DNA of 64,000 nt from Rhodococcus opacus (GTDB taxonomy: Bacteria; Actinomycetota; Actinomycetes; Mycobacteriales; Mycobacteriaceae). Below, piece after piece: positions 16,300 to 45,808 of this stretch (position 1 is the stretch's first letter; each line of letters begins with the position of its first letter). A program made the translations under genes and the position numbers. The stretch is from contig NZ_JAAXPA010000001.1 in the NCBI RefSeq assembly GCF_012396235.1, positions 372,001 to 436,000 of the forward strand, read 5' to 3'. The notes under the pieces were generated by a model. The model saw nothing but the letters and a program-made list of their open reading frames with translations, was not told where the DNA came from and searched no databases.

Positions 16300-16447
16300 C
16301 CGTCCATACTGTCACCACGATTGGCAAATCGAACAGCGATGTAATCAAATAATGCGCGACACGGCAATCGCGGTGGACACGATCGAGGTGGCAACGGTCA
16401 TCTCGGAGGAACGGGTGGCGGACGGTCACCTGACGGAGGGGTCAGAC

Positions 16448-17044: not shown

Positions 17045-17055
17045 CAGCAGGCGCC

Positions 17056-17086: not shown

Positions 17087-17090
17087 TCGC

Positions 17091-22200: not shown

Positions 22201-23169
22201 CGAGGTCGACGTCGCGACAGTGCGCGGCAAGGGCGGTGAACGACTCGGCCGCATCCACCTGCGTGCGCAGGGCGAGCGTGCCCACGAACATGCCCACCAG
22301 ATCGTCGAGTGCGGGCTCTCCCCGGCCGGCGATCGGGGTGCCGACGGCGACGTCCGGAGTTCCACCGAGGCGGCTGAGCAACACCGCGAGGGCGGCGTGC
22401 ACGGTCATGAATTCGGTGGAGCCGAGCCGTCGCGACAACTCCCGGATGCGACGGTGAAGGTCGCTGTCGACGGAGAAGTGGATGCGCTCGCCGCGGAAGG
22501 ACTGCTGGGACGGCCGATCCCGATCGGTGGGGAGTTCCAGGAGATCGGGGGCGCCGGCCAGCGCGATCGTCCAGTAGTCGAGTTGCCGCGATATCAGCGA
22601 CTGGGGGTCGTCGTCCGAACCCAGCGATTCCCGTTGCCACAGGGCGTAATCGGCGTACTGCACCGGCAGGGGCGCCCAGTCGGGCGCGCCGCCGGAGACG
22701 CGGGCGCCGTACGCCGTCATCACGTCGCGCACCAGCGGGACCATCGAGAACCCGTCTGCCGAGATGTGGTGCACCACCACGGCGAGTACGTGCTCGGTAG
22801 CGCTCAGTGAATACAGCCCGACCCGCAACGGAAGCCTCACGGTGACATCGAAACCCGCCGAGACGAGCCGGGTCACTTCCTCCCGCAGCTGCTCGTCCGA
22901 GACGGTGACGGGGATCAGCGCGGGCACCGCACCCGCAGCGGGCAGGATCTGCTGAACCGGCCAGTCGCCGCGGACCGGGAACATCGTGCGCAGCGACTCG
23001 TGCCGGGCGACGACATCGGTGAGCGCCGAATTCAGCGCTCCCACATCGAGGTCCCCGCTGAGTGTCACCACGATCGGGATGTTGTAGGCGGCCGAGGTGG
23101 TGTCGAGCTGGTTGACGAACCACATCCGCTGCTGCGCGAACGACAGCGGAATGTCCTCGGGCCGGGCGC
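19229..23169 (-). other. NRPS module 7: C - A - T - thioesterase
   Basis: The C domain has HHISADG. The A pocket D-A-F-T-D-V-G-I-Q is unassigned and unlike the terminal module of the upstream NRPS. The T motif is LGGNSL. The thioesterase has GWSLGG and a late GHNEMIEP carrying the catalytic His. Hydrolytic release and cyclisation cannot be told apart from the sequence. Confidence 0.82.
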
Positions 23170-26100
23170 GGGCCGCGAGCACCGGTCGTCCGGACGGCTC
23201 CGCACCGGCGTGCTCGATCCGTGCCGCCAGCGCGGCGACCGTGGGCGCCTCGAACAGATCACGCACCCCGCACTCGGTGCCGAGCAGCGCTCGCAGCCGC
23301 GCCATCACCCGGGTGGCGCTCAGGGAGTTTCCGCCGATGTCGAAGAAACCGGCGTCGGCGCCGACACGCCCCAGCCCGAGTACGTCCGCGAAGACTCCGG
23401 CCACCGTTTCCTCGATCGGACCGATCGGCACCCGGTCGTGCCCCGTCCCGGAGAGCAGATCGGGCTCGGGCAGTGCCGTGCGGTCCAGCTTGCCGACCGC
23501 CGTCAGTGGAATGTGATCCAGAACCGTGATCGAGGTGGGCACCATGTGGGACGGCAGGCGGTCCGCCAGGTGCCGGGTGAGTACCGCCGTGTCGAGGGAG
23601 CGACCCGACGTCGGAACGACGTACGACACCAGCAGGGCGTCTCCCGCAGGACCGCGATGCGCGAGAGTGGCGGCGAATCCGACGTCCGGTTCCGACATGA
23701 GGGTGGAGTCGATCTCGCCGAGTTCGATTCGGAAACCGCGCACCTTCACCTGGAAGTCGGTGCGGCCCACGTACTCGATGCTGTGGTCTGCCGTCCACCG
23801 CACGATGTCACCGGTGCGATACATCCTCTCCCCGGGACGGACGGGGTCGGCGACGAACCGCTCGGCGGTGAGTGCCGGTCGGCGGTGGTAGCCGCGGGCC
23901 AGACCGGCCCCGGCGAGATACAACTCGCCCGGAACCCCCACGGGGACCGGTTGCAGCCGGGAGTCGAGCACCAGTTCCGTCACCCCGCGGATCGGCCCGC
24001 CGATGGTGATCGGGTGCCCGGGGACCATCGGCTCGCTGATGTTGGACATGATCGTCGTCTCGGTCGGTCCGTACGCGTTGTACAGCCGGCGGCCCGGCGC
24101 CCAACGGGCGACGAGTTCGGGCGGGCAGGCCTCGCCGCCGAACACCAGGTCCGTGAGCTGCGCCAGCCCGGCCGGATCGAGTGACGCCAACGCAGCGGTG
24201 GTGATGAAGGCGTGGGTCACGCCCCGGTCGGCCAGAAGCCGCGCGAGTTCGTCGCCGCCGAACACGGTGGGCGGCGCGATCACCATCGTCGCGCCGGCAC
24301 CGAAGGCCTGCAGGTACTCGAACACCGACCCGTCGAAACTCGGTGTGGAGAAGTGCAGAGTCCGGGACTGCGGTGTCGCACCGAAACGTTCGAGCTGGTC
24401 CAGAGCGAAGTTGTCCAGTCCGCGATGGGTGACCACCACACCCTTGGGCACACCCGTGGACCCCGACGTGTACACGGCGTACACCGCGGTGTCCAGCGTG
24501 ATCGGACCGCTCCGGTCGACATCGGTCACGGCTGCCGCCGGGCGCTCGGCGCACTCGGCCGCGAAGCCGGGTTCGTCCAGGGCCAGCCAGTTCGCGGTGC
24601 CCGGGAGCCGGTCTCGGTGTTCGGTCGTGGTCACGCCGAGAGTTACTCCGGAATCGACGAGCATGTGCGTGATGCGCTCGTCGGGGTAGTTCGGATCGAT
24701 CGGCACGAACGCCGCACCGGTCTTCGCCACCGCCCACACCGACAGCACTGAGTCGAGGGACCGCGGTATCCCGATGGCCACGAACGTCTCCGGGCCCGCC
24801 CCCCGCGCGATGAGTGCGCGCGCCAGGCGATTCGACCGCTCGTCCAGGTCGCCGTAGCTCACGTCGCCGTCCTCGGAGGACAGTGCGATCGCCCCCGGAT
24901 CGAGCGCGGCCCCCTCTTCGAGGATCTGCGGCAGCGTGCGGGTCGACCCGCCCGGACCGCCGCGGACCGGCACCAGATCGGCGCGCTCCCGGTCGGTCAG
25001 CAGCGACAGCGCGGCCAGCGGCTGGTCCGGACGAGCGCACGCGTCGAGCACTCGCAGCACGCGTCCGGCGATGTCGTCGATGGTGTCCGCGTCGAAGACG
25101 TCCGGGAGGTACTCGAACTTCAGGCGCAGACGAGCGTCGGCGGATGCCACGAGACTCAACGGATAGTGGGCCGCATCTCGCGCGTCCACTCCGGCGACGC
25201 GCATTCCGGCGATGTCGGTCTCGGTGGAGAGCCCGGCGCGGTCGACGGGGTACGACTCGAACACCGTCAACGTGTCGAATCCGACCTCCGGTCCGGCGGC
25301 ACTCTGGATTTCGGCCAGCCCGAGGTGGTGGTGATCCAGCAACGCCGCCTGCTCGGCCTGCACCCGTTCCAGCAGGGCGCCCACCGTGTCGTCGGGGCGC
25401 AGCCTCACCCGGACGGGCAGTGTGTTGATGAACAGTCCGACCATCGTCTCGATGCCGGTCAACTCGGGGGGCCGCCCCGAGACGGTGGCGCCGAACAGCA
25501 CGTCGTCTCGGGCGGTCAACGTACCCAGCACAATCCCCCAGGAGACCTGAACGAGCGTGTTGACGGTCAGTCCCCGCGAACGCGCGACGTCGCGCAGGCG
25601 GGTGGTGTGGTCCTCGTCCAGGTCGAAGACGAACTCGTCGGACATCGTGGACAACCGCCGTCCCCGGTCCGAGTGGGCCAGCAACGTCGGTCCGTCCACC
25701 CCGGCGAGGGCCCGAGCCCACACCTCACGGGAGGCGCCCTGATCTCGGCGGCTCATCCACCCCAGGTAGTCGCGGTACCCGCGAACGCGGGGCAGCGGCG
25801 ACGGGTCCCCGTCGGTGGCGTACAGCGTCAGCAACTCCCGGACCAGCAGCGGCATCGACCAGCCGTCGAGGAGGATGTGGTGGTTCGTCGACACCAGCCG
25901 GTAGCGGTTCGGCGCGGTAGCGATCAACAGGAACCGGATCAGCGGGGCACGCGTCAGGTCGAACGGGCGACCCCGGTCCTCGGCCAGTAGTCGCGCGACC
26001 TCGGACGCCGCAGCGTCCTCGTCGAGAGCCGTGAGATCGACCTCGCGCCAGGGCGCCTCCACCCTTCGACGGATCACCTGAACTGCGTTGCCGTCGACGT

Positions 26101-29100
26101 CGTGCCGGAAGCAGGCGCGCAGATTGGCGTGCCGGTCCAGCAGGGCGTCGGCCGCGCGGCGCAGTCGATGCGGATCCACGGCGCCCTCGAGTTCGAGGCT
26201 CACCTGCACCAGGTAGGCGTCGAGGGAGTCGTCGGCGAGTTCGGAGTGGAAGAGCATGCCGGACTGCAGGGGCGACAGCGGCCACACGTCCGTCAGGTCC
26301 GGACAGATGTGTTCGAGGTCCTCGATCGCATCCTCTCGAAGTTCGACGAGATCGAGATCCGACGGCGTGAACCCACCGCCACCCGACTCCGTATGCGTGC
26401 CGAGAGCAGCGAGCGCCTGCAGCCATAGCTGCGCGAGTTCCTCGACCTCCTCGTGGGTGAGGACGCCCGGAGGGTAGGTCCACGTGGAGTTCAGCTGGGG
26501 GCCGTCGCCCGAGTCGACGGTCATCGCGTTGACGTCGACGACGGCCGCGACGGGCACCGCCGACTTCTCGCGCAGTCCGGGTTCCTCGACCGGCACCCAC
26601 CCCTCGTCGGTCTCCGTGGCGGTCCGGCCCATTCTGCCGAGGTAGTTGAAGCTGACCTGAGGCGTCGGCAGCGGTGAAAGAACGTGCGCCGTCTCGTCGT
26701 TCAGGTACCGGAGTAGTCCGAAACCGATGCCGTGGTCGGGAACGGCGAGGAGTTGCTCCTTCACGGACTTGAGCGCGACCCCCGCGGACGGGCCCGCGGC
26801 GAACGCGTCGTCGAGGTCCACCCCGCTCAGATCGAGTCGCACCGGGAAGAGGGTGGTGAACCAGCCGATCGTGCGCGCGAGATCCGCGCCCGGCACCACG
26901 TGCTCCTCTCGACCGTGTCCCTCGAGACCCACCAGCGCGCCGGGGAGTTCGATCCCGCGGCGTCGCCGCCAACTCGTCAGCGCCATGGTCAGTGCCGTCA
27001 GCAGCGCATCTCCCACACCGGCGTGGAAGGCCCGCGGCACGGTTGTCAGGAGGGTCTCGGTCAACGGGGCAGAAACTCGTACCGCGAAGTGCGCGGCGGT
27101 CGCAGCGGTGTCCGACACGGTCACCGGGCGCGACCCCAGCAGCGGGTCGGGCGCGTTCAGCATTCCCCGCCACAGTTCGACCTCGGCGGTGCGCTGGGGT
27201 TCGCGCGCGGCGTCGGCGAGTGCGTGTGCCCACCGGCGCATCGACGTTCCCGGTGGCTCGAGCGCCGGTTCCGCGCCGGACTGCAGTTGCGCGCACACCG
27301 CGGCGAGGTCGGGGATCAGGATCCGCCAGGACACACCGTCCATCGCCAGATGATGGACGACGATCAACACGCGACTCGGATGGTCGCCGTCCAGCCAGAC
27401 CGCCTGCAGCATCACGCCCGACTCCGGGTCGAGCCGATCGAGGGCACTGTCGAGTTCGGCGCCGACATCGTCCACCCGGCCCCGGCGGAGAACGCTCGCC
27501 GCCCGCACCGATCCTTCGGCCTGCACCTCCATCGACCAGCCCTCTTCGGTGCGGGACGTGCGGTACAACCGCGCCCGCAACAGGTCGTGCCGATCCAGCA
27601 CGGCCTGCAGCGCCGCCGTCAGGGTGTCGTCGTCCACCGAGGCGGGCAGCGTGAACAGAGCGGACTGCGAGTAGCGGCGGAAATCCCCACCCCGGGCGAG
27701 CATCCACCGCACGATCGGAGTCAGCGGAATCTCGCCGATCCCGGCCCCGGGCAGCTCGTCGAGAACCACCGTCCCGTCATCCGTTCCGGCCGCCGCGGCC
27801 AGCCCGGCAACGGTTTTGCGCTCGAACACCTCGCGCGGCGAAATCAGTATCCCGGCGGCCTTGGCGCGGGTGACCAGCTGGATGGACATGATCGAATCCC
27901 CGCCGAGGGCGAAGAACGAGTCGTCCACCCCCACCGAGTCGAGGCCGAGGACCTCCGCGAACAGCTCCACGAGGGTCCGTTCCGTCTCGGTGACCGGACC
28001 GCGGCCCACGGTCATTCGCTGTCCGAAGTCCGGTTCGGGCAGAGCTTTCCGATCGAGTTTGCCGTTCACCGTCCGCGGCATCTCGTCGAGAACCACCACG
28101 GCGGCCGGCACCATATGCGACGCCAATCGCTCGGCGGCCGTATCGATGATCGCCGCCGGGTCGATCGCGACACCGGTCTCCGGCACCACGTACCCCACCA
28201 ACCGGTCCCCGCGTGCCGTCACCGCAGACTGCGCCACCCCCTCGCACGCGAGCAGCGCCGACTCCACCTCACCGAGTTCGATCCGGTAGCCCTTGACCTG
28301 CACCTGGAGGTCGTTGCGGCCGAGGTATTCCAGCTGTCCGTGCCCGTTCCACCTGCCCAGGTCGCCGGACCGGTACATCCGGGCCCCGGGAGTGAAGGGG
28401 TCGGCGACGAATCGGCCGGACGTGAGGGCCTGCCGGCCGAGATAGCCACGTGCGACCTGCGCCCCGGAGACGTACATCTCCCCGACCACGCCCGGCGGCA
28501 CCGGATGCAGTCGTCCGTCGAGCACGTACACGCGCAGTCCGGGCAGTCCCCGGCCGATCACGGAGGCGGGCTCCTCCTCGACGACGTCCCGGGCGATCGG
28601 CAGGTGGCTGACGTGCACGGTGGTTTCCGTGATGCCGTACATGTTGACCAGGACCGGCGCGGTGTCGCCCCGGCGTGCGTACCAGCGCCGCAACTGGCCG
28701 AACTCGAGGGCCTCCCCGCCGAAGATGACGTACCGCAGCGACAGGCCGGGACCACCGGCGAGACGATCGGCCTCCGCCAATTGGTAGAAGGCGGTGGGGG
28801 TTTGATTCACGACCGTGACTGCTTCGTCGCGCAATAGTTCGAGGAACTTCGCGGGTGAGCGCGCCGTGAAGTAGTCCACCAGCACCAGCCGTCCGCCGTG
28901 CGCGAGCGCTCCCCACATTTCCCACACCGAGAAGTCGAACGCGGCGGAATGGAACATGGTCCACACGTCGGCCGGTCCGAATCCGAACAGCGTCTGGGTG
29001 TTCGCCAGCAACGTGATCACGTTGCGGTGCGAGACCTGCACGCCCTTCGGCTGCCCGGTGGAACCGGACGTGTAGATCACGTACGCCACCGAGTCCAGGT

Positions 29101-32100
29101 GCAGCGGAGCACGGCGGTCGGTGTCGGTGACCGGCAGCGACGACAGCTGCTGCAGCGCAGTCACTGTCTCGGGATCGTCCACCACAACCACCGGAACCCC
29201 GGCGCCGCGGAAGGTCTCGGCGTCCGCGGTCGTGGTGAGCACACACTTCGGCCGGGCGTCGCCGAGCAGGAAGGCCAACCGCTCGGCAGGAGAGGCCACG
29301 TCCACCGGAAGGTACCCGGCGCCCGACTTCACCACCGCCAGCAGTGCCACGACGAGGTCGATCGACCGCGTCATCCCCACCGCCACCAGGTTTTCCGCGG
29401 CTGCCCCCTGTTCCACCAGCAGTCTCGCGAGCCGGTTGGCCCGGTCGTCGAGCTCGCGGTACGTCACCGAAGCGTCGTCGCAGCGCACCGCGACGGCATC
29501 GCCCGCGGATGCCACCATGCGATCGAACGCATCCACGAGCGACAGCGGTGGGACATCGGTCCCCGGCCGATGCGCGGCGGTGAGCAGGAGCTCGCGTTCG
29601 GGCGCGTGGAGGATGTCGACGTCCCCGACGGGTGCGGTCGGGTCGGTGGTCACGGCCTCGATCACCCGCACGAAGCGCTCGGCGAAACTCTCCACCGACG
29701 CGCGATCGAACACATCGGTCGCGTAGCGGAGGCCGGCGCTGATCCCGGCCGGCACGCCCTGCTCGTCGACCCGCTCCACCAGGCTCAGCTGCAGATCGAA
29801 CTTCGCGACGTCCAGATCGACGTCGAGCGACCGGGCGGTCAACCCGGGCAGTTCCAGGTGGGTTCGGGTGGCGTTCTGGAATTCGAGCAACACCTGGAAC
29901 AGGGGTGAGTGCGCGGTCGACCGCTCGGGTGCGAGTTCGTCCACCAGCCGCTCGAAGGGAAGGTCTGCGTGCTCGAACGCGCGGAGGTCCACCGACCGCA
30001 CGGCGGTGAGCACGTCGGCGAACGACGATCCCGGCGCCACCGGTGTGCGGAGCACCAGCGTGTTGACGAACATCCCCACGACGTCGTCGAGTGCCGCGTG
30101 GCCCCGGCCCGCGACCGCGGTTCCCACCACCACGTCGTCCGATCCCGACACCCTCTCCAGCAGCACGGCCAGCGTGGCGTGCACCACCATGAACAGCGTC
30201 GAATTGTGCTGTCGTGCAAGATCGGCCAGAGCTTCGTGGACGGATGGCGGGATGTCGAACGGGACGACGGCCCCGAGGAAGGACCGGTGGACGGGTCGGG
30301 GCCGGTCCAGGGGCAGTGGCAGCACGTCCGGGATGCCCGACAATGTCCGGGCCCAGTACCCGAGCTGACCGGACATCACCGAATCGGGCTGGTCTTCGGT
30401 GCCCAGTACCTGTCGCTGCCACAGGCTGTAGTCGGCGTACTGCACGGGCAGCGGCGCCCAGCCGGGTGCCTGCTGCTGTGCGCGGGCGGTGTAGGCGAGC
30501 GTCAGGTCGCGCGCCAGGGGCGCCATCGAGAAGCCGTCGGCCGCGATGTGGTGCACGACGAGGGCGAGGACGTGCCGCTCGGGAGTGAGTGTGCACAGCC
30601 TCACCCGGATCGGAAGGTCCTCGGTGACGTCGAATCCCACGCCGAAGAATGCGGTGAGCGAGTCGTGAAGGGCTCCTTCGGCAACGGGGACCGGATCGAG
30701 GTCGGGGGTCGCGAGCGTGGAGTCGACGATCACCTGCCGGGGGCCGTCGGCGGAACCGGGAAACACGGTCCGCAGCGACTCGTGGCGTTCCATGACGTCG
30801 CCGAGTGCCGCTTGTAGCGCAGCCAGGTCCACCACGCCGTCCAACTGCAGGGCGACCGGGATGTTGTAGGCCGGTGAGGAGGTGTCGAACTGGTTGACGA
30901 ACCACATCCGCTGTTGCGCGACGGAAAGGGGAATCCGCTCGGGCCGCGCCGTCGCGGTGAGTGCCGGGGAGCCGGAACTCGTCCTCACGTCCGAGTCGAT
31001 CCGGACGGCCAGATCGGACACCACGGGTGCGTCGAACAGCGCCGCGACACCCAGAGTCGTGTCCAGTGCGCTGTTGATGCGTCCCACCACCCGGGTGGCA
31101 CTGAGCGAGTCTCCCCCGAGGTCGAAGAAGCTGTCGTCGGCCCCGACGCGGTCGACATCGAGGACGGCGGCGAAGGCGGTGGCGATCGCTTCCTCCGCGG
31201 GTGTGGTGGGGGCGCGGTATCCGACGGTGCGCGTGCCGAATTCCGGTTTCGGCAGCGCTTTCCGGTCGAGTTTGCCGTTCACCGTCACCGGCAACTCCGC
31301 CAGCACCACCACCACCGACGGCACCATGAACCCCGGCAACGCCACCGCAGCCCACTCCCGCACCACCCGCTCGTCCACCACCGCCCCGGCCACCGGCACC
31401 ACATACCCCGCCAGATACTCCCCCGACGACCCATCGCCGCGCAGCACCACCACCGCCTGCGCCACATCCTCCCGGCGCAACAACACCGCCTCGATCTCCC
31501 CCAACTCGACCCGCTGACCCCGCAACTTCACCTGAAAATCCGTACGCCCCAGATACTCCAACTCCCCACCCGGCAACCACCGAACCCGATCCCCCGTCCG
31601 ATACAACCGCGAACCCGCACCGAACGGATTCGCCACGAACCGATCCGCCGTCAAATCCGGCCGCCCCCGATACCCCCGCGCCAACTGCACACCCCCGAGA
31701 TACAACTCCCCCGCCACCCCCACCGGCACCGGCCGCAACCGCCCGTCCAGCACCAACGTCTGCGTATTCCACACCGGCGCCCCGATCGGCACCACCCTCC
31801 GATCCGCCTCCGTCACCTCGTGGAACGTGACATCCACCGACGCCTCCGTCGGACCGTACAAGTTGTGGAGCCGGGCACCGGGTACCAGTGTCCGCATCCT
31901 CGACGCCGTCCGCGCGGGCAACGCCTCACCCGAGGCGAACACACGCCGCAGGCTCGTGCATCGCGTCACTGCCGGTTCCGCGGTGAATACGGCCAACATC
32001 GAGGGGACGAAATGTGCTGTCGTGACGTCATTCTCGGCTATCGCGTTCACAAGATAGGCCGGGTCGCGGTGCCCGTCCGGCTCCGCGATCACCAACCGCG

Positions 32101-35100
32101 CCCCGACGATCAACGGCCAGAACAACTCCCACACCGACACATCGAACGTCACCGGCGTCTTCTGCAGGATCACGTCCTCCGACGTCAGCGGGTACCGCTC
32201 CTGCATCCACAACAGCCGATTCACCACACCCTCGTGCGGAACCGCCACCCCCTTCGGCCGACCCGTCGACCCCGACGTGAAGATCACATACACCGGATGA
32301 GCAGGACGCAACCGCGACAACCGCTCCCCATCCCCCACCACACCGACCGAAAACCCCGACACATCCAGGGTGTCGAGTTCCACCACCCGCACACCCGCAG
32401 GCACCACCACCCCATCCCCAGATGTGGTCAGCACCAACACCGGATCCGCCGTCGCCACCACAAACCCCACCCGCTCGGCAGGCTGATCCGGATCGATCGG
32501 GACATACGCCCCACCCGCCTTCACCACCGCGTACATCCCCACCAGCATCTCCACCGAACGACGCACCGCCACACCCACCGACGACTCCGGACCCACCCCC
32601 GCCCCGATCAGGAACCGCGCCAACCGATTCACCCGCGCACCGAACTCCCCATACGACAACACCGTCCCGCCACACACCACCGCCGCAGCATCCGGGGTCC
32701 GACCCACCTGCGCATCGAGCAGGTCGGCGAGGGTGATGTGGGGCACCAGGTGACCCGTCGCATTCCACGAACCCACCACCAACGCCCGCTCACCCGGCCC
32801 CAGAACCTCCACATCACCGACCGCGGTGTCCACGTCGCCGGCGATCGTCGCCAGAATCCGGACGAGGCGGTCGGCGAGCGCTGCGGCTTCGTCCCGGTCG
32901 ACGGCTCCCGGCTGGTAGCGCAGACTCAATCGCAGCCGTGGTTCGAGGATCGACAGCAGAGTGAGCGGATAGTGCGTGGCGTCGCGGGCATCGAGACCGG
33001 TCACCCGCATGCCCCCGATGTCGGTGTTCTCGTCCAGCCCGGACGTGTCGATCGGGAACGACTCGAACACCGACAGTGTGTCGAACAGATTGCCCAGACC
33101 CACCCGCGACTGAATTTCGCCGAGGCCGAGGTGATGGTGGTCGAGCAGGGACGTCTGCTCGTCCTGCAGGCGGGCGAGCAGTCGCGCGACACTCTCGTCC
33201 GGGTCCACCCGTACTCGCACGGGCACCGTGTTGATGAACAGTCCCAGCATGTTCTCGACACCGGACAGCTGCGGCGGACGACCGGACACGGTGGCACCGA
33301 AGACCACGTCGTCGCGGGAGAGCGACCGGGACAACAGCATCCCCCACGCCGCCTGGATCACCGTGTTCATGGTGACGCCGGCGCATTCCGCCGCCGTGGC
33401 GAGTCCGTCGCGCAGCGGGGCGGGCAGTTCGACGTCGAGTTCGTGGGGCACACCGTAGAGCGCCGCAGACGCGTGCGGCGCCACCAGCGTCGGCTCCTCG
33501 ACACCGTCGAGCGCTCGTTCCCAGGCCCGCGCCGATGCCTCCGCGTCCCGGCTCGCCACCCATTCCAGATACGTGCGGTACGAGGGCGGGTCCGGCAGTC
33601 CGGCCGGGTCGCCGTCGGCGGCATAACGAACCAGCAGTTCCCGCACCAGCAACGGCATCGACCAGCCGTCGAGGATGATGTGATGATTCGTGACCGCCAG
33701 CACGAAGCGTCCCGGTGCGGTGCGGAACAGGGTCAGCCGGAGCAGGGGCGGCCGGGCGACGTCGAACCTGGCACTGCGGTCCTCGTCGAGCAGGCGCTCG
33801 AGTTCCGTGCCGGGGGCCGACCCCTCGACGGTGAGATCCACTTCCCGCCACGGCACGTCCACCGTGTCGACCACCAGTTGCGCGGGCACCCCGTCGTCGT
33901 AGACGAACGCGGTCCGCAGGCTGGGGTGGCGGGCCAGCAGCCCTGCCGCGGCGGCGCGCAGACGTTCGGCGTCGACCGCACCCTCGAGGTCGATGCGCAG
34001 TTGGGCGGTGTAGACGTCCATCGACTCCGCGGCCAGGGAAGCATGGAACAGCAACCCGGACTGCAGCGGAGACAACGACCACACGTCCCGCAGTGCCGGG
34101 AAACGCTCCTCCCAGCGCTCGATCTGCTGCTGGTTCGCCGAGACCAGCGGAACGTCGGACGGTGTCAGCCCGCCCGCATCCGGTCGTGACGCGTGCGCGG
34201 CAACTCCGGCGAGGGCGCGGCGCCACAGATCCGCGAACGCCGCGACCTCCGCCTCGCGGAGGACCCCGGTCGGAAATGCGAACGACGCCATCAGACGGGG
34301 TCCGTCTGGACTGTCGGAGACGACGGCGTTGACGTCGATCACGGATGCGACGGGCATGTCGGGATTCCGGGTGCCGCCGAGCGTGCTCTCCACCGGCAGC
34401 CAGTCCTCGGCTCCGTCCGTGGTGGTCACTCGACCGAGATAGTTGAAACTCACTTGCGGAGCCGGGAATCGGCTGAGGGACTGCGCCGTCTCGTCGCCCC
34501 GGTAGCGCAGTAGTCCGAAGCCGATCCCGTGATCCGGGATCGCGAGCAACTGCTCCTTGACAGCCTTGACCGCCTGCCCTGCCGCGACACCACCTGCCAT
34601 CGCGTCGTCGACGTCGATTCCGGTGAGATCCAACCGCGCCGGATACACGGTGGTGAACCAGCCGACGGTACGCGACAGGTCCGCGCCGGAGACGACCTGC
34701 TCCTCGCGGCCGTGCCCCTCGAGGGTGATCAGCGCGTCCGACACGGGGGCGTCCCGTTCCCGTCGCCAGGCGATCAGTGCCAGCGTGACCGCGGCGAGCA
34801 ACCCGTCGCCCACGCTCCCGTGGAACGCGTCCGGAAGCGTGGTGAGCAGGGCGCCGGTCACCGACGACGACACGTCGACCCTGACGGTGCCGACGGTCGC
34901 GTCGACGTCGATCGCGGGATCCATTGGGCGCGAACCGATCAGCGGGTCCGGGCCGTCGAGGATCGTCTCCCACGATGCCAGTTCACCGGTCCGGTGCCGC
35001 GCCGCTTCGGACAGGCCGTGCGACCACCGCCGCATCGACGTTCCGACTGCCGGCAACTCCGGGGTGAGACCGGCCTGGAGTCGGCTGCACGCCGACGCGA

Positions 35101-38100
35101 GATCCGCGACGAGGATGCGCCAGGAGACGCCGTCGACAACGAGGTGGTGCACCACCACGAGCAGTCGCCCGACGTCGCCTGGGACGTCGAACCAGACCAC
35201 CCGCACCATGCGGGCCGCGGCGGGGTCCAGGTGGTCGGCCGCAGCATCGAGTTCCGTGGTCGCGAGCGCGGTGAAGTCGTCTCCCGTCACCGTGTCGACC
35301 GGCACCCGACGGACCAGTGCGTCCGCGGGCACCGAGCCCGCCGGCAGCACGTCCATCTCGTCCGCGGACACACGCGCGCGGAGCATGTCGTGCCGGTCCA
35401 GTACCGCCTCGACGGCGCGGACGAGGACCTCGTGGGTGAGACCGGCGGGGGCCGCCAGCAACAGCGCCTGCGAGAACCTGTCGAGCCGCCCGCTGCTGCG
35501 CTCGAACGTCCAGCGCGCGACGGGTGTCAGCGGCAGGGTGCCGACGCCACCGCCCGGCAGCTCGTCGAGAGCCACTGCGCCGTCGCTGTCGAATCGCGCC
35601 GCCGTGGCGAGGCCGGCGACCGTTCGGTGGTCGAACACGTCTCGGGGAGAGAGGATCACACCGGCGGACCGTGCGCGGGCCACCAGCTGTATCGACATGA
35701 TGCTGTCACCGCCGAGGGCGAAGAACGAGTCGTCCACGCCCACCGAGTCCAGTCCGAGCACCTCCTCGAACAGTCCGGCGAGAAGCTCCTCGGTCTCGGT
35801 GTGCGGCGGCCGACTCGCGGAACCCGCGAAGTCCGGGGCCGGAAGCGCTGTGCGGTCGAGCTTTCCGTGCACCGTCAGGGGAAGCGCTTTGAGTGTCACC
35901 AGCGCCGCCGGCACCATGTACGACGCCAACCTGCCCCCGACGAAGTCGAGGACAGCCCTCGTATCGACCGTCGCATCCGGTGCGGGCACCAGGTACCCGA
36001 TCAGCCGATCGCCGCCGCCGTCCCCGTTCCACACGCTCGCGACCGCGTGGGCCACGGAGTCGTGCGCGAGCAGCACCGACTCGACCTCACCGAGTTCGAT
36101 GCGGAAGCCCCGGATCTTCACCTGGGCATCGGTGCGCCCGAGGTACTCCAACTGACCGTCGGGAAGCCAGCGTGCCCGGTCGCCGGTGCGATACATCCGG
36201 CTTCCGGGCGGGCCGAAGGGGTCGGCGACGAAGCGTTCGGCGGTCAGTGGGTACCGCCGGCGGTACCCGCGTGCGAGGGCGGGACCTGCGAGATACAACT
36301 CTCCTGCGACACCGGCCGGCACCGGGTGCAGTCGCGAGTCCAGCACGACCTCGGCGAAACCACGCGTGGGCGTGCCGATCGTGACCGGAGCCCCCGGTAC
36401 CAGTTCGTCGCTGATGCTCGACACGACGGTCGACTCGGTCGGACCGTACGCGTCGAACATGCGACGGCCCGGCGCCCACCGCCGGACCAGTTCGGGCGGA
36501 CACGCCTCGCCGCCCGTCACCACGCACTCGAGGGCGGTGAGACCGTCGGGGTCGACCGACGCCAGGGCCGCCGGAGTGACGAAGCAGTGCGTGACCCGCT
36601 CGGATTCCAGCAACTGCGCCAATTCGGCACCGCCGTAGACGGACGGCGGTGCGATCACCATCGTGGCTGCCGCGCCGACCGCCAGCAGCAGTTCGAGAAC
36701 GGACGCGTCGAAGCTCGGCGATGCGAAGTGCAGCGTTCTGGATTCGGGTGTCGTACCGAACGTCTCCCTCTCCTGGGCGGCGAAGGCGGCGAGACCGCGG
36801 TGCGTGGTGACCACACCTTTGGGCCTGCCGGTCGACCCCGAGGTGTAGATGAGGTAGGCGGGATTGTCGATCCGAATCGTCGACGTCCGCTCGTCATCGG
36901 TGACCGGCGACGACGGATAGTGCGACAGCCTGTCCTCGAGACCCGGGTCGCCCAGCACCAGCCACGGCACCGCGTCCGGAAGTGCGCCGCGTTGCGCCGA
37001 GCCCGTCACACCCCACACGGCGCCGGAGTCGGTGAGCATGAATTCGATCCGTGCGGCCGGATGGTCCGGATCCACCGGAAGGAAGGCGGCCCCCGACTTG
37101 GCCACCGCCCAGACGGCCAGGACGGATTCGACGGACCGCGGCACACACAGGGCGATGACGGATTCCGGGCCGACGCCGCGCTCGATCAACATGCGGGCCA
37201 ACTGGTTCGATCGCCTGTCGAGGTCCCCGTAGCGCACGACACGCCCGTCGAAGACCAACGCGGGGGCCTCCGGATCGTTCGCGGCCGCCTCGGCCATCAG
37301 ATCCGGCAGCGTCCGTGCCGCTACCGCCGCACCGCCCGTCACCGGGGACAGTACGGCACGCTCCAGCGGTCCGAGAATGTCGATGTCTCCGACCCGGGCG
37401 CCGGGGTCGGCCGTGACCGCCTCGAGAATGCGCACGAGTCGTTCCGCGAAGCCGAGCACCGTATCCTCGTCGAAGAGATCGGTCGCGTAGCCCAGTCCCG
37501 CGGCAATGCCGGTCGGGTTGCCGTCGGCATCGACGTTCTCGGCCAGCGTCAACTGCAGATCGAAGTTGACGGTGTCGATCTCGAGTTCGATGTTCCGCAC
37601 CTGCAGATCCGGCAATTCCAGAGTGGGACGCTCGATGTCCTGGAACTCCAGCATCACTTGGAAGAGCGGCGCGTACGCCGTCACCCGGGAAGGACTCAGG
37701 ACTTCCACCACCCGCTCGAACGGGACCTCCGCGTGGGTGAAGGCGCCCAGATCGGCTTCCCGAACGCCGGCCAGGAACTCGGAGAAGGTGGCGCCGCCGT
37801 CGACGTGGGTGCGCAGGACGAGGGTGTTGACGAACATGCCCACCACGTCGTCGAGTTCGCGCTCGCCGCGACCGGCGATCGGCGTCCCGACGGCGATGTC
37901 GTCTGCACCGCTCACGCGTGCCAGCATGATCGCCAACGCGGCATGCAACGTCATGAACACCGTCGTGGTGTGTTGCCGTGCCAGCCTGACCACACCGGCA
38001 TGAACCTCGGGTCCGATCACGAACTCGACGTGGCCGCCGCGAAGTGACCGGACGGTGGGACGGGGACGATCCGTGGGCAACTCCAGCACTTCGGGCAGAT

Positions 38101-41100
38101 CCGACAGCGTGGTGGTCCAATACGTCAGCTGTCGGGAAATGGGCGAATTCTCATCGGATTCCGATCCCAGCCACTCGCGCTGCCACAGCGCGTAGTCGGC
38201 GTACTGCACCTCGAGCGGGGCCCACTCCGGGGCCGACCCGTTCACCCGGGACACGTACGCGTCCATGACGTCGCGGGCCAGCGGTGCCATCGAGAAGCCG
38301 TCGGCCGCGATGTGATGCACCACCACCGCGAGCACGTGCACGTCCGCGTCGAGGCTGAACAGTCGTGCGCGCAACGGCACCTGCGTCGTCACGTCGAATC
38401 CTGCGGACAGCACTCTCCGCGAATGTTCGCGGAACTCGGCTTCCCCCGACACCGCGATCGGTTCGAGGTCGGGCACCGCGCTCGCCGCGGGCAGGATCAC
38501 CTGGCGCGGCCCGTCGTCGGTGAGCGGGAAGATCGTCCGCACGGCCTCGTGCCGTTCGATGACGTCGGCAACCGCCGCCCGGAGCGCACGCACGTCGAGC
38601 CGCCCCTCGAGCCTCAACGCGAACGCGACGTTGTATGCGGACGAGGTGGTGTCGAACTGGTTGATGAACCACATCCGCTGCTGGGCGGGCGACACGGGGA
38701 CTTCCGCGGTACCTTCCCTGGGCTTCAGCGGTGGTCGGGCCTCCAGCCCGTCGTGCGCCTCGGCCAGCGCCGCCAGACCGGCCACGGTGGGGGCGTCGAA
38801 TACGTCGCGAATACCGATCCGGTCCCCGACGGCCGCATTGATCCGCGCGACCAACCTGGTGGCGATCAGAGAGTTTCCGCCGAGGGCGAAGAAGTCGTCG
38901 TTCACGCCTACCCTCGGGACACCGAGCAGGTCGGCGCACACGGCGGCCACTATTCCCTCGATCGGGGTTCGGGGAGCGACGAAACCCACAGTAGCGCTGC
39001 CGAAATCTGGTTCGGGCAGGGCCTTGCGGTCGAGTTTGCCGTTCACCGTCACCGGCAACTCCGCCAGCACCACCACCACCGACGGCACCATGAACCCCGG
39101 CAACGCCACCGCAGCCCACTCCCGCACCACCCGCTCGTCCACCACCGCCCCGGCCACCGGCACCACATACCCCGCCAGATACTCCCCCGACGACCCATCG
39201 CCGCGCAGCACCACCACCGCCTGCGCCACATCCTCCCGGCGCAACAACACCGCCTCGATCTCCCCCAACTCGACCCGCTGACCCCGCAACTTCACCTGAA
39301 AATCCGTACGCCCCAGATACTCCAACTCCCCACCCGGCAACCACCGAACCCGATCCCCCGTCCGATACAACCGCGAACCCGCACCGAACGGATTCGCCAC
39401 GAACCGATCCGCCGTCAAATCCGGCCGCCCCCGATACCCCCGCGCCAACTGCACACCCCCGAGATACAACTCCCCCGCCACCCCCACCGGCACCGGCCGC
39501 AACCGCCCGTCCAGCACCAACGTCTGCGTATTCCACACCGGCGCCCCGATCGGCACCACCCTCCGATCCGCCTCCGTCACCTCGTGGAACGTGACATCCA
39601 CCGACGCCTCCGTCGGACCGTACAAGTTGTGGAGCCGGGCACCGGGTACCAGTGTCCGCATCCTCGACGCCGTCCGCGCGGGCAACGCCTCACCCGAGGC
39701 GAACACACGCCGCAGGCTCGTGCATCGCGTCACTGCCGGTTCCGCGGTGAATACGGCCAACATCGAGGGGACGAAATGTGCTGTCGTGACGTCATTCTCG
39801 GCTATCGCGTTCACAAGATAGGCCGGGTCGCGGTGCCCGTCCGGCTCCGCGATCACCAACCGCGCCCCGACGATCAACGGCCAGAACAACTCCCACACCG
39901 ACACATCGAACGTCACCGGCGTCTTCTGCAGGATCACGTCCTCCGACGTCAGCGGGTACCGCTCCTGCATCCACAACAGCCGATTCACCACACCCTCGTG
40001 CGGAACCGCCACCCCCTTCGGCCGACCCGTCGACCCCGACGTGAAGATCACATACACCGGATGAGCAGGACGCAACCGCGACAACCGCTCCCCATCCCCC
40101 ACCACACCGACCGAAAACCCCGACACATCCAGGGTGTCGAGTTCCACCACCCGCACACCCGCAGGCACCACCACCCCATCCCCAGATGTGGTCAGCACCA
40201 ACACCGGATCCGCCGTCGCCACCACAAACCCCACCCGCTCGGCAGGCTGATCCGGATCGATCGGGACATACGCCCCACCCGCCTTCACCACCGCGTACAT
40301 CCCCACCAGCATCTCCACCGAACGACGCACCGCCACACCCACCGACGACTCCGGACCCACCCCCGCCCCGATCAGGAACCGCGCCAACCGATTCACCCGC
40401 GCACCGAACTCCCCATACGACAACACCGTCCCGCCACACACCACCGCCGCAGCATCCGGGGTCCGACCCACCTGCGCATCGAGCAGGTCGGCGAGGGTGA
40501 TGTGGGGCACCAGGTGACCCGTCGCATTCCACGAACCCACCACCAACGCCCGCTCACCCGGCCCCAGAACCTCCACATCACCCACTGGCGCATCCGGATC
40601 CGCAATCACTCCCGCCAGAATCCGGAGGAACCGCTCCCCGAATCCCACGACCGTGTCCGGATCGAACACATCCGACGCGAACGTGAACGACGCCTCGATG
40701 CCTGCTGCCATCCCGGACGCGTCGTAGCGCTCCGCGAGGGTCAACTGCAGATCGAACTTGGACACACCGGAATCGACGTCGAGGATCTCCACCGTCAGTC
40801 CCGGCAGGTCGAGGTGCGCCGGGGCGGTGTTCTGGAACTCCAGCAGAACCTGGAACAGCGGTGAATACGCGGTCGAGCGGGTCGGTGCGACCGCGTCCAC
40901 CACGCTCTCGAAGGGCACCTCGGAATGACCGAACGCCGCCAGATCCGCTTCCCGCGCCCGGGACAGCACCTCGCCGAACGTTGCGGCAGGCTCGACGATC
41001 GTCCGCAGGACCAGGGTATTGACGAGCATCCCCACCACGTCGTCGAGTGCTTCCTCGCCCCGCCCGGCGATCGGCGTCCCGATCGCGATGTCGCCGGAAC

Positions 41101-44100
41101 CGCTCAGCCGCGCCGCCAACACCGCCAGCACCGCATGCATCACCATGAACATCGTGGAATTGTGTTGCCGCGCGAGGAGGAGAAGCTCCCGATGATCTTC
41201 CGCCGACACCGAAAACCGGACGATCCCACCCCGGAGCGCTCTGTCCGCGGGCCTCGGCCGGTCCAATGGAAGATCCATCGCGTCGGGGAGCCCGGACAGC
41301 GTCTGCTTCCAGTACTCCAACTGCGCCGACATCATGCTGCCGGGATTCTCGTCGCTGCCGAGGGCCGCCCGCTGCCACAGGCTGTAGTCGGCGTACTGCA
41401 CCGGGAGTGGCCGCCAGTCGGGAGCCTGCTGCTGTAGCCGCGCCGAGTACGCCACCATCAGGTCGTGGGCGAGCGGGGCCAGCGACGCTCCGTCCGCCGA
41501 AATGTGGTGCACCACCAGCATGAGGACGTGCTCGTCGTGACCGGTCCGGAACAGGGCACCACGCACGGGCACCTCGGTGCTCACGTCGAAGCCCTGAGCA
41601 GTCGACTCGGCGATCCGCGCGCGCACTGCGTCCTCGTCTTCGCAGACCGTCGGCTCCAGATCCGGAATTACCTCCCCCGGTGACAGGATCACTTGATGCG
41701 GTCCGTCCACCGACGCCGGATACACCGTGCGGAGCGATTCGTGTCGTTCGAGGACATCCGCCACCGTCGCCCGGAGCGCCTCCACGTCGAGCGTTCCGGA
41801 CAGTCGCAGCGCCATCGGAATGTTGTAGGCGGGCGACGAGGTGTCGTACTGATTGACGAACCACATACGTTGCTGGGCAAGCGACAGCGGGATCCGGTCG
41901 GGGCGTGTCCGCGCCACCAGGTCCGGGCGGTCGGGGCGCCTCGCGTGGGCACCCTCGATCCATCCCGCCAATGCCTCCACCGTCGGCGCCTCGAACAGGG
42001 TCCGCACCACGAGGTCGGCGCCGAGTGCGGCGTTGACCCGCGCGACCACTTTCGTCGCGACCAGTGAATTTCCGCCGAGGTCGAAGAAGCTGTCGTCGAG
42101 GCCGATTCGTTCCACACCCAGCACGTCGGCGAACACTCGCGCGACGGCCCGTTCCACCGGAGTGACGGGCGCACGGAACTCGGTGGCCGTGGAGAGGAAT
42201 TCCGGCGCCGGCAATGCGGCACGATCGAGCTTCCCCACCGGTGTCATCGGGATCTCGTCCAGAATCACGATCGCTGCCGGCACCATGTACGTCGGCAATT
42301 GCTCTGCGGCATAGTCGATCAACTCGGCAGTCGCCAGCTGTTTCCCTGCTGCCGGCAGCACGTACGACACGAGCACCGTGTCGCCGGACGGTGCCGTTCG
42401 CGGCATCGTCACTGCGGTCCGCACCCGCGGATGGGTATGGAGGACGGTGTCGATCTCACCGAGCTCGATGCGGAAGCCGTGTACCTTCACCTGGAAATCG
42501 CTGCGGCCCTGGTATTCCAGCGTGCGGTCGGTTCGCCACCGCACCACGTCCCCGGTGCGATACATCCGGTCGCCGGGGCCGCCGAAGGGGTTGGCCACGA
42601 ACCGTTCCGCCGTCAACGCTGATTTACCGTGATATCCGCGAGCGAGGGCGTCGCCCGCGACGTACAGCTCCCCGGCCACGCCGACCGGCACCGGGTTCAA
42701 CCGCGCATCGAGGACGACCTCGTGGAATCCGCGGAGCGGACCGCCCAGTGTGATGGCTCCGTCCGGTGACAACGGTGCACTGATGTTCGACATGACGGTC
42801 GCCTCGCTGGGCCCGTACGCGTTGCACAATCTGCGACCGGGCGCCCACCGCTTCACCAGTTCCGGCGGGCACGCCTCGCCACCGAACACCACGTCCCGGA
42901 AGTCGGCGAGTCCGTCCGGCTCGACCGTTCCGAGCGCGGCAGTGGTGACGAATCCGTGGGTGACCCGTTCCGACGTCAGGAGGCGGGACAACTCGGCGCC
43001 GCCGTAGATCGTGGGCGGAACGATCACCATGGTGGCGGCGGCGGCGAACACGTGCAGGTACTCGGATACGGACGCGTCGAAACTCGGTGTGGAGAAGTGC
43101 AGAATCCGGGACGTCTGTGTGGCCCCGGATCGTGAGCGCTGCTCGGCCGCGAAGTCGTCCAGGCCACCGTGTGTGACCACGACGCCTTTGGGCCGGCCCG
43201 TGGAACCGGACGTGTAGATCACGTACGACGGATTCTCCACGCGGAGAGGCCGCGTCCGCTCCGCGTCGGTCACGGCGGATTCCGGCTGCGTCGCACAGAG
43301 CGACCGGAATTCTTCGTCGTCGAGCACCAGCCACGGAATGGCGTCCGGTAGCCGGGAACGCACGGCGGACACCGTCACCCCCAGCGCAGCGCCCGAATCG
43401 TCGAGCATGTGCTCGATGCGTTCGGCCGGGTAGTTCGGGTCCACCGGCACGTAGGCCGCACCAGACTTGGCCACCGCCAGCATCGACAGAACCGACTCGA
43501 TCGAGCGAGTCAAGCCCAGTGCCACGAAGTTCTCCGGCCCGATGCCGCGTTCGGCGAGGACGCGTGCCAACTGGTTCGAGCGCTCGTCCAATTCTCGGTA
43601 CGTCACCTCGACACCGCGATACGAGAGCGCGACACCGGTGGGATTGGTTCGTGCTGCCGCTGAGAACAATTCGGAAAGCGTGCGACCCGGACGTCCCGGC
43701 ACGCCGGAGACCGGAACGAGGGTCGCGTGTTCGGTATCGGACAGGATGTCGATGTCGCCGACGGCGAGCGCCGGGTCGCCGGTGACCGTCTGCAGGATTC
43801 GGCGGAACCGTTCGCCGAGGCCACGTACCGTCCCGGGGTCGAACAGATCGGTGGCGAACCCGAGTGTCGCCGTGATCCCGGACGGGGTGCCGTCGGCGTC
43901 GACGGCCTCGGTCGCGGTCACCCGCAGGTCGAATCGGCCGACCCCGGAGGTCTCCGCCCCCTCGCGGCACTCGAACAGGACTTGGACGATCGGCGAGTAT
44001 GCGGGCGAATCGCTGAGCGCGAGTGTCCGGACCACCTGTTCGAAAGGGACGTCGCGGTGCTCGAACGCCGCCTGGTCGACATCGCGGACGTGGCCGAGGA

Positions 44101-45808
44101 GATGAGTGAAGGAGGTGTCCGGTTCGACGCGGTTACGGAGCACCACGAGGTTCCGGCTCCGGCCGTCGTCCACCACGGTCGTCGTTCCGATCGCCACATC
44201 CGAGGCACCCGACAGCCGGCTCAGCAGAACGGTGAAGGCCGCGTGCAGCACCGAGAACGTGGTGGTGTCGTGTTCCCGCGCCAGGGCCACCACTCCGGCA
44301 TGTGCCTCTGCACCGATCGCAACGTCGACGCGGTCCTCCCCCCGGGTTTGCGCGGCGGGGCGAGGCCGATCGGACGGCAGATTCAGCACTTCCGGCATCC
44401 CCGACAGCCGATCCTTCCAGTACTCGAGTTGGTGCGCCGCGAGGCGTCGTCGCGCACCGTCGAGGGCCGTGGCCTCGTGAATCGTCGCGACCCGGGCCTG
44501 CGGGCCGGCCGAGATGAACTCTTCCAGCAGTTCGACGAAGTGCCGGTGATGCAGGCGCAGTGCCGAATCCTCGTACCGGTTCGGGTTGGCCCGGAAATCG
44601 ACGAAGATCTCGGCCGGCGTCCCGCTCGGGTACACGTTGACCAGCAGATCTTCCACCGGACCCGACGTGACGATGTGGTATTCGCCGACCAGCGGGCCCA
44701 GTTGGACGTTCTGATGGAACAGCATGACGTTGACCATGGGGCCGTGGAGTTCGGCGCCAGTGCCCGTGCCCACGTCGCGGCGGATGTCCTCGATACTGCA
44801 CCGCTGATGCCGCAACGCGCCCATCAGTTCTCGCCTGACCCGCGACACGAGGTCCGCGACCGTCTCGTCCTCGTCGACCGTGATCGGCAGCGGTGCGACG
44901 TTGACCATCATGCCGCCGGAGTTGCGCAGCACCGACGTGGTCCGGCCGGACATCGGAACATTCACGAGAACATCGGTTTTCGCCGTGATCCGCGACAGGT
45001 AGCAGGCGAAGGCGGCGATGATCGTGACTGCCGCGGTGGCGTTTGCCTGACTGTCGGCGTTGTGGATTCCGGAAACGGCCGCCTCGGACAGCAGGGCACT
45101 CTCGACCTTGCTCCTGGCGAGTGCGGGCGCGGTCGCGGTCGCGTCGGCCAGGGTCGATCCTTCGACTGCCTCGACTCGTTTCGCCCAGTACTCCCGATCG
45201 GCCACGAAGCGGTCGGAGGACCGGTAGCGGGCGTCGACGTCGTACAGCTCGTGCAGGGTCGCGGCTCGATTCGGATCCGGTTCGCGACCGGACATCGAGG
45301 CCGAGTACCGGTGCGCGATGCGGTTGATCAGTGTCATGGCGCCGTAACCGTCGAGCGCGACGTGGTGAATGCGGCTGTACCACAGGTAGTGCGACTCTCC
45401 CACGCAGAGGATCGAGGTCTCGAACAGTCGATCCGTGTCGAGATCGAGTGGGGCCTGGTAGTCCCGGTCCATCCATTCGTGCGCTGCAGCGACCGGATCG
45501 TCCTCACCGCGAAAGTCGATGACGGCGATGGACGTGTCGGTGGTGTGGTCCACGTACTGCATCGGCCGGCCGTCGACCTCGACGACCTTGAGGAACGGCG
45601 ACTGGAACTCGCGGGCCACCGCGATGGTCTCCCGTCGCAACAGGTCGATGTCGAGGTCGCCGTGCAGTTCCACGTAGTGCGCTACCGAGATCGGCACCGC
45701 GGGGTCGAGTTGCTGCGCGAACCAGGTGGCACGCTGCGCCGCAGACAGCGGGAAGGGCACCGCGCCCGAATCGTGTGTAGCCGGCTTTCGCGTGTCGACG
45801 GGCTTCAC
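19229..45808 (-). CDS. Seven-module nonribosomal peptide synthetase, 8,859 aa
   Basis: A 26.6-kb gene for a complete NRPS that builds and releases one peptide. Domain order with rough residues: C1 17-450 (HHVALDG at 148), C-terminal half of a second C domain 455-690, A1 700-1210, T1 (Ser 1248); C2 1300-1735, A2 1743-2261, T2 (2313); C3, A3, T3 (3369), E1 3405-3890; C4 3900-4325, A4 4331-4849, T4 (4901); C5, A5, T5 (5972), E2 6010-6490; C6, A6, T6 (7495); C7, A7, T7 (8554), TE 8610-8859 with GWSLGG (Ser 8687). C4 and C6, just after the E domains, have the NHHIxLDGWS form of D-accepting domains. The first domain is C with no A before it, so an acyl or aryl starter is expected, giving an N-acyl heptapeptide. 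Pocket residues predict Ser at 2 and 4 and Thr at 5; the residues at 3 and 5 should be D. The GTG start has GGGGAGG upstream. The A2 and A4 domains come from an apparently identical DNA repeat. Confidence 0.95.
23170..26299 (-). other. NRPS module 6: C(D-accepting) - A - T
   Basis: The C domain has [14 protein letters not shown]. The A pocket D-G-F-F-V-G-A-I-M differs in one position from the equivalent module of the upstream NRPS (D-G-F-F-V-G-G-I-M). The substrate is not assigned. The T motif reads IGGNSL instead of LGGNSL. Confidence 0.8.
26300..30939 (-). other. NRPS module 5: C - A(Thr) - T - E
   Basis: A5 reads [28 protein letters not shown] and [11 protein letters not shown]. The pocket D-F-W-N-I-G-M-V-H is the known threonine code. 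The E domain has [13 protein letters not shown] (near 27345). The product residue should be D-Thr; epimerising the alpha carbon of L-Thr gives D-allo-Thr. Confidence 0.88.
30940..34109 (-). other. NRPS module 4: C(D-accepting) - A(Ser) - T
   Basis: The C domain has [14 protein letters not shown] (near 33670), the D-accepting form expected after an E domain. A4 is the second copy of the serine A domain (repeat 31263-32818). The T domain [10 protein letters not shown] and its linker closely match those of the second visible module of the upstream NRPS, while the A domain does not. Confidence 0.88.
31263..32818. repeat. 1,556-bp direct repeat, copy 1 (A domain of module 4)
   Basis: Identical to 39027-40582 in all stretches compared, at a constant in-frame offset of 7,764 bp. 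Similarity drops at once on both sides. The ends lie in the C-A linker ([10 protein letters not shown]) and in the A10 motif (NGKLDR). Codons within the repeat end mostly in G or T, unlike the flanking C-ending codons. Confidence 0.92.
34110..38709 (-). other. NRPS module 3: C - A - T - E
   Basis: Pocket D-A-L-F-V-G-A-V-V, unassigned, but identical to that of the first visible module of the upstream NRPS. The T motif is [11 protein letters not shown], typical of carriers in front of E domains. The epimerase has [13 protein letters not shown] (near 35130) and FNYLGR, so residue 3 should be D. Confidence 0.82.
38710..41919 (-). other. NRPS module 2: C - A(Ser) - T
   Basis: The C domain has HHISADG. 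A2 reads [26 protein letters not shown] and [10 protein letters not shown]. This gives the pocket D-V-W-H-F-S-L-V, the same code as the serine domain of EntF. The T motif is LGGNSL. A2 lies inside repeat copy 39027-40582. Confidence 0.88.
39027..40582. repeat. 1,556-bp direct repeat, copy 2 (A domain of module 2)
   Basis: Partner of 31263-32818, encoding residues of about 1743-2261 of the NRPS. The first base beyond each end already differs (C against G at 40583/32819; G against C at 39026/31262). This is a sharp exchange unit covering one whole A domain. Confidence 0.92.
41920..45808 (-). other. NRPS module 1: C - half C - A - T
   Basis: The C domain resembles starter-type domains that accept an acyl group in trans. 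It is followed by a second C-domain C-terminal lobe (about 43740-44446) that lacks HHxxxDG. Its LDDVVGM(F/L)VNTLVLR block is reduced to [11 protein letters not shown], so it should be inactive. A1 has [11 protein letters not shown] and pocket residues D-A-S-F-V-G-A-V-M (GrsA positions 235, 236, 239, 278, 299, 301, 322, 330, 331); I cannot assign the amino acid. The T motif is LGGNSL. Confidence 0.8.

What the first reader, a model, noticed from the sequence alone, without database searches (positions are those of the whole stretch)
31263..40582. Natural swap of a complete adenylation domain inside one NRPS gene
Modules 2 and 4 share a 1,556-bp direct repeat with no mismatch in the rows I compared. 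The flanking C and T domains are only ordinarily similar. The ends fall in the C-A linker and in the A10 motif, close to the borders used in engineered A-domain exchange. Both copies carry the EntF-type serine code. In the paralogous upstream NRPS the equivalent module (60869-57725) has a near-identical T domain and linker but a different A domain. So module 4 was probably rewritten to serine recently, by gene conversion from module 2 or by import of both.
Basis: partly seen in the sequence, partly recalled or inferred. Interest (0 to 1): 0.82.

Follow-up and report, generated by a model that had tools for sequence, protein, structure and literature searches.

The report
Two NRPS domains kept identical repeatedly
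Two parts of one giant peptide-making enzyme in a Rhodococcus are letter-for-letter copies, because in this genus one copy keeps being overwritten with the other; this shows how such enzymes evolve and may lose building steps, but here it does not seem to change the amino acid chosen.

Summary
The repeat is real: 31263-32818 and 39027-40582 are identical over 1,556 bp. They are the adenylation (A) domains of modules 4 and 2 of a 7-module NRPS in a Rhodococcus near R. wratislaviensis. It is not a recent switch to serine: in 17 genomes with both copies, every readable pocket is serine-type (33 of 35 rows readable, one with a single change). C and T domains sort by module (support 100), but in 12 of 16 species A2 and A4 are sisters. 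Both flanks of the pocket are homogenised in 12 of 17 genomes: recurrent intragenic gene conversion. In six species a ~200-bp segment between motifs A4 and A5 escaped and keeps an ancient M2/M4 difference. In the window's strain it is overwritten too, with M2 as inferred donor. G005 (R. jostii RHA1 by recalled size) has a 5-module form fused at this A domain; a second NRPS shows the same pattern. Closest precedent: mcyB1/mcyC of microcystin synthetases. An assembly artefact is not excluded for the window's own 100% identity.

The parts
19229..45808 (-). 7-module NRPS gene A: C-A-T / C-A-T / C-A-T-E / C-A-T / C-A-T-E / C-A-T / C-A-T-TE
   Evidence: ORF, domain motifs
39027..40582 (-). A domain of module 2 (serine code); inferred donor copy
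   Evidence: exact repeat, code, island tree
31263..32818 (-). A domain of module 4 (serine code); inferred overwritten copy
   Evidence: exact repeat, code, island tree
39638..39832 (-). segment between motifs A4 and A5 (island) in module 2, repeat-relative 750-945
   Evidence: sliding identity and edges in relatives
31874..32068 (-). same island in module 4: M4-type in most relatives, M2-type here
32819..39026 (-). stretch between the copies (T2-C3-A3-T3-E3-C4); absent, together with one A copy, from the 5-module orthologue in G005
45973..63957 (-). tandem paralogous NRPS gene B (continues beyond the window; seven A domains in the series, up to C1:441034)
58009..59562 (-). A domain of the equivalent module of gene B, not serine-coded (DVLCVAGILK)

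Best explanation
The two A domains are an old same-specificity (serine) pair in one NRPS gene that is repeatedly homogenised by intragenic gene conversion, separately in many Rhodococcus lineages. Shown: homogenisation confined to the A domain, recurrence, unchanged pocket residues, and an unconverted island between motifs A4 and A5 in six species. Inferred: the molecular route (homologous recombination between the repeats), that in the window's lineage M2 was copied onto M4 across the island, and that the 5-module form in G005 came from recombination between the two copies. Predicted effect on the product: none from conversion, two residues fewer from the deletion.
For: C and T trees: M2 and M4 are two clades at SH-aLRT 100, 16 against 16 rows; A tree: 15 label changes, 15 forced by starred branches, A2 and A4 sisters in 12 of 16 species. 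AU rejects one M2 clade for A (p 1.2e-5, two identical sets left free) and own M2/M4 as sisters for C and for T. A2/A4 identity within 17 genomes: N flank at least 95% in 12, C flank at least 94% in 13, island at least 95% in 6 and 59.5-66.7% in 11; C side 36-44% and T 43-64% in all 17. Island tree: two types at 100/100. G005: C side and linker M2-like, island and T M4-like, open frame of 6,278 codons stop to stop. Second NRPS, C23: exact A-A repeats of 1,310, 1,312 and 1,258 bp in own, G026, G006, about 96% in G010, single fused module in G005. Third NRPS: exact A-A repeats of 1,480 and 1,338 bp in G026 and G005. Codes stay the same: of 33 readable rows 32 DVWHFSLVD, 1 DVWHVSLVD.
Against: The window's own 100% identity rests on a draft of 109 contigs without reads. 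G014, G003, G017, G024 and, in the N flank, R. tukisamuensis are little or only partly homogenised. Direction is not general: R. tukisamuensis carries the two islands exchanged, and the island of G012/G022 sits in the M2-type half of the tree but has the one-residue gap of the M4 type. The A, C, T and flank trees are quick trees with SH-aLRT only. The fused gene of G005 could be an assembly collapse.
Confidence: 0.9

Rival explanations
1. Assembly artefact: the assembler copied one A domain consensus into both places, so the perfect identity in this strain is false.
For: Draft assembly of 109 contigs; its contig C88 stops inside an A domain of what, by motif order, appears to be the third NRPS with an A-A repeat; stops or frameshifts in G009 A2 and A4 and in G027 A4 suggest that such repeats are hard to polish.
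Against: Homogenised pairs, with differences between the copies, are in assemblies of 2-9 contigs (G006, G008, G009, G010, G011, G015, G027; contig numbers, identities). Short contigs of G021 and G023 end in or at both edges of the repeat, as expected of true near-identical copies. Merging copies whose islands differ by about 35% would need a large error (inference).
Confidence: 0.07
2. One reading: module 4 was recently converted from another amino acid to serine.
For: The equivalent module of the paralogous gene B has another code, and its T domain is closer to M4's than M2's is (74% vs 49% aa).
Against: Each M4 pocket that could be read in the relatives is already serine-type.
Confidence: 0.03
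3. Both copies were imported together from outside, or each lineage acquired its own pair by horizontal transfer.
For: Mixing of labels in the A tree alone would also fit.
Against: The N flank recovers the close species groups seen for C (own+G026; G006, G008, G010; G012+G022); the C flank recovers the last two, own and G026 being unresolved there. Between-species A identity falls with E-domain identity. The nearest other A domain compared in the genome is 71%.
Confidence: 0.02
4. The spared island reflects selection for two different pocket segments in M2 and M4, not merely a low-homology barrier to conversion.
For: Both island types are constrained (mean pN/pS 0.33 and 0.41 within types, 0.61 between); six species converted both flanks and not the island.
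Against: Six of 17 genomes lost the difference, R. tukisamuensis carries the types exchanged, pocket residues are the same, and in G014, which looks unconverted, the island is already the least similar part (62% against 69 and 72%).
Confidence: 0.3

Closest known systems
mcyB1/mcyC adenylation domain replacement in microcystin synthetases (Fewer et al. 2007, PMC2174460; passages read)
   Same: Recurrent replacement limited to the A domain; in four strains A domains 93-97% alike while C domains are 27-28%; mixed A tree against split C tree.
   Different: There the two positions are loaded with variable amino acids and most pockets differ; here both copies keep one serine pocket, sit in one gene, and an island between motifs is left unconverted in six species.
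Concerted evolution of PKS/NRPS domains (Medema et al. 2014, PMC4256081; passages read)
   Same: Domains of one cluster resemble each other more than their counterparts in related clusters, explained by internal recombination, thought near-neutral for the product.
   Different: For NRPS they describe cluster-specific branching in daptomycin, A54145 and CDA; here one defined pair is followed across 17 genomes with tract edges, donor direction in the window's lineage and a fused form.
A-core subdomain exchange, hormaomycin and others (Baunach et al. 2021, PMC8097286; Calcott et al. 2020, PMC7486941; passages read)
   Same: Breakpoints beside the binding-pocket region of A domains.
   Different: There the exchanged A-core segment is read as the change that alters the residue; here the pocket segment is the old part and the flanks were overwritten, without a change of code.
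Humimycin-type Rhodococcus NRPS (Ceniceros et al. 2017, PMC5550956; passages read)
   Same: Rhodococcus NRPS family with, by the wording, at least seven modules; a lead only.
   Different: Product and orthology not tested here.

Membership tests
Concerted evolution of NRPS A domains | Paralogous domains within a genome more alike than orthologues between genomes | tested here: met
   12 of 16 species have A2 and A4 as sisters; not so in G003, G014, G017, G024
Concerted evolution of NRPS A domains | Flanking domains keep their separate histories | tested here: met
   C and T trees split by module, 100; AU tests
Concerted evolution of NRPS A domains | Recurs independently in several lineages | tested here: met
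   15 label changes each in A, N-flank and C-flank trees, 15, 13 and 14 forced by starred branches
Natural A-domain swap that changes specificity | Recipient pocket code differs from that of its orthologues | tested here: not met
   same code in the relatives, one with a single change
mcyB1/mcyC type A-domain replacement | A domain exchanged without the C domain | tested here: met
mcyB1/mcyC type A-domain replacement | Positions involved vary in the amino acid loaded | tested here: not met
   by predicted code only
EntF-type serine A domain | Pocket residues as in EntF (code positions recalled, GrsA numbering) | tested here: met
   alignment to 5JA1 at nine positions, DVWHFSLVDK
EntF-type serine A domain | Activates L-serine | not testable with these tools
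   needs an ATP-PPi assay
Humimycin NRPS | Orthology to iupU / same product | not tested
   only the published wording on architecture seen
Assembly artefact | One copy in reads | not testable with these tools
   no reads held

The most novel reading that the evidence does not exclude
Homogenisation of A-domain flanks around a retained pocket segment is a general mode of NRPS evolution that is easily mistaken for import of a new pocket (subdomain swap). In opacus-group Rhodococcus it acts on several NRPS genes at once, keeps pairs of A domains recombination-ready, and feeds module loss, as in the two fused synthetase genes of G005. Part of the published breakpoint hotspots beside the binding pocket would then record copied flanks, not imported pockets.
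Probability: 0.35. Interest if true: 0.75.

Novelty: new variant of a known kind. Interest (0 to 1): 0.6.

Why it matters
It gives a natural, replicated experiment on which parts of an NRPS can be exchanged: about 500 residues from the C-A linker to A10 are overwritten again and again while C and T keep their own histories, and the same copies appear to allow in-frame loss of two modules. It also warns that a pocket segment that differs from its surroundings need not have been imported.

Tried and rejected
Considered and rejected: single recent swap to serine (M4 serine-type in each relative that could be read); import of both copies; purifying selection on protein sequence alone (0 differences of any kind in 1,556 bp, against 88-90% DNA identity to the nearest orthologues). 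I looked for a source of the M4-type island among the other own-genome A domains; none is close, the best being another serine-coded domain (C35:90616) at 79%, and the identities of that script are inflated because gap columns were left out. The AU test of own M4 with the M4-type rows was uninformative because identical rows were left free. G001 could not be used for module 2 (a run of N in the fetched stretch and no second A match). G016, G021, G023 and G007 have contig ends inside or beside the A domains and were not counted. Rows dropped: G027 M4 from the careful island tree; G027 M4, G009 M2 and G009 M4 from the codon counts (stop or frameshift). G011 was added to the identity table but is in no tree. 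The own-genome survey covers only stretches that or one search had hit, not necessarily every NRPS gene. Loci outside the genus (L067-L082) were listed and not analysed.
Full report
Observation. The two stretches are identical over 1,556 bp and differ at the bases just outside. They lie in one minus-strand ORF of 8,859 aa and are the A domains of modules 2 (39027-40582) and 4 (31263-32818) of a seven-module NRPS with E domains in modules 3 and 5 and a TE. The tract begins in the C-A linker and ends just past GKLDR of motif A10. Outside, identity drops to about 70% over gapped C and T alignments. The code read at ten pocket positions is DVWHFSLVDK in both, the same as EntF at the nine positions covered by the alignment to 5JA1; code positions and the meaning serine are recalled knowledge. 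Among 69 near-full-length A domains (of 76 hits) in the own-genome stretches fetched, 2 of 2,346 pairs share an identical run over 83 nt: this one and C23:133721/136907.

Organism. The window is part of an 8.1-Mb, 109-contig genome.

Relatives. A search of 28 genomes of the genus, own included, with the E domain of module 3 found orthologous loci. Sixteen loci hold both modules (own, 14 G genomes, and R. tukisamuensis L064), and all 16 have the FTSGSTG form in A2 and A4; G011 makes 17. Six others were not counted: G005 has one fused copy, G007, G016, G021 and G023 end in or beside the repeat, G001 has a gap. The remaining six (G002, G013, G018, G019, G020, G025) gave only weak matches and were not examined.

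Concerted evolution. In trees of 32 rows, C and T split into an M2 and an M4 clade with support 100, while the A tree needs 15 changes of the M2/M4 label, 15 forced by starred branches; A2 and A4 are sisters in 12 of 16 species. AU rejects one M2 clade for A (p 1.2e-5; two sets of identical rows left free) and a sister pair of own M2 and M4 for C and for T. Identity within a genome (gaps counted): N flank at least 95% in 12 of 17, C flank at least 94% in 13 of 17, against 36-44% on the C side and 43-64% in T. Between own and G026 the orthologous flanks are 92-96% alike and the A domains 90.4 (M2) and 88.2% (M4), so identity of A2 and A4 is not explained by slow evolution. G003, G014, G017 and G024 show little or partial homogenisation.

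The island. In six relatives (G004, G006, G008, G010, G026, G027) both flanks of the A domain are 94-100% alike between M2 and M4, but repeat-relative 750-945, between motifs A4 and A5, is only 59.5-66.7% alike; the edges fall near 745 and 955. The careful island tree (31 rows, G027 M4 left out) has two types with support 100/100: M4-type = nine M4 rows plus M2 of R. tukisamuensis; M2-type = the other 21 rows. AU rejects G026 M2 and M4 as sisters in the island (p 1.8e-5), and rejects the six M4 rows as one clade in the N flank (p 4e-5) and in the C flank (p 1e-97, one identical set left free). So the flanks were copied and the island is the old part. Island homogenised: 6 of 17 (own, G009, G011, G012, G015, G022). 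The window's copies sit beside M2 of G026, support 95/90, hence M2 to M4 in this lineage. With no difference in 1,556 bp and 5-10% divergence from G026, the last copying is at most 2-4% as old as that split (Poisson 95% bound; assumes equal rates). Both types are constrained: mean pN/pS in the island 0.33 and 0.41 within types, 0.61 between. For G012 and G022 the type is unsure, since they share the one-residue gap of the M4 type. R. tukisamuensis carries the types exchanged. I therefore prefer a low-homology barrier to position-specific selection, without being able to exclude selection.

No change of code. Of 35 rows (17 pairs and G001 M4), 33 were readable over nine positions: 32 DVWHFSLVD, 1 DVWHVSLVD (G024 M4); G009 M2 and G027 M4 are frameshifted. 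The lysine of motif A10 was checked in the own genome only. Hence no recent switch to serine.

Module loss. In G005 the orthologue has five modules in one open frame of 6,278 codons, stop to stop: C2 and linker resemble M2, island and T resemble M4. By inference the crossover lies in the N flank. The chromosome length, 7,804,765 bp, is that of R. jostii RHA1 as I recall it. An assembly collapse is possible.

Other genes. C23, a bimodular NRPS, has A-A repeats of 1,310 bp (own), 1,312 (G026) and 1,258 (G006), about 96% in G010, with 79-98% per 100-bp bin between own and these species, and a single fused module in G005 whose C side fits the first and T side the second module. Both own codes are DAFVVAAIMK. 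A third NRPS has exact A-A repeats of 1,480 and 1,338 bp in G026 and G005.

Upstream paralogue. Gene B's equivalent module has a different A domain (42% aa, code DVLCVAGILK); its T and linker are 74% alike to M4 of gene A, not near-identical. Either gene may have exchanged this A domain before the Rhodococcus species compared diverged.

Literature. The listings of searches showed no paper on A-domain conversion in Rhodococcus (0 papers with Rhodococcus, adenylation domains and gene conversion; most subscription journals are not held). Fewer et al. 2007 and Medema et al. 2014 describe the principle (passages); Booth et al. 2022 describe intragenomic recombination of A domains (passages); Baunach et al. 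2021 and Calcott et al. 2020 place breakpoints beside the pocket (passages). Hence: new variant of a known kind.

Noticed in passing
G000:C23:133709-135018 and 136895-138204 (L009): Second A-A exact repeat (1,310 bp) in a bimodular NRPS of the same genome; same tract in G026 and G006, fused single module in G005.
   Followed up: yes
L125 (G026:C15) and L127 (G005:C1): Third NRPS with exact A-A repeats of 1,480 and 1,338 bp; own contig C88 ends inside an A domain of what, by motif order, looks like the same gene.
   Followed up: partly
window 43216-45808 (minus): The loading end of gene A has a full C domain followed by what reads like a second half-C before A1: 717 aa from the first HHxxxDG to A3 of module 1, against 468-493 in the other modules.
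   Followed up: no
L051 (G009) A2 and A4; L048 (G027) A4: Stops or frameshifts inside the repeated A domains of assemblies in few contigs, likely sequencing or polishing errors in repeats.
   Followed up: no
L064 (R. tukisamuensis): M2-type and M4-type islands exchanged between the modules while C and T stay in place.
   Followed up: partly
window 2863-18293: Downstream of the NRPS, not obviously part of the cluster: CorA-like transporter, ATP-dependent DNA ligase, DUF6764, beta-lactamase-family protein, ferredoxin/oxidoreductase, ABC importer parts; two of ten ORFs scanned had no Pfam match.
   Followed up: no
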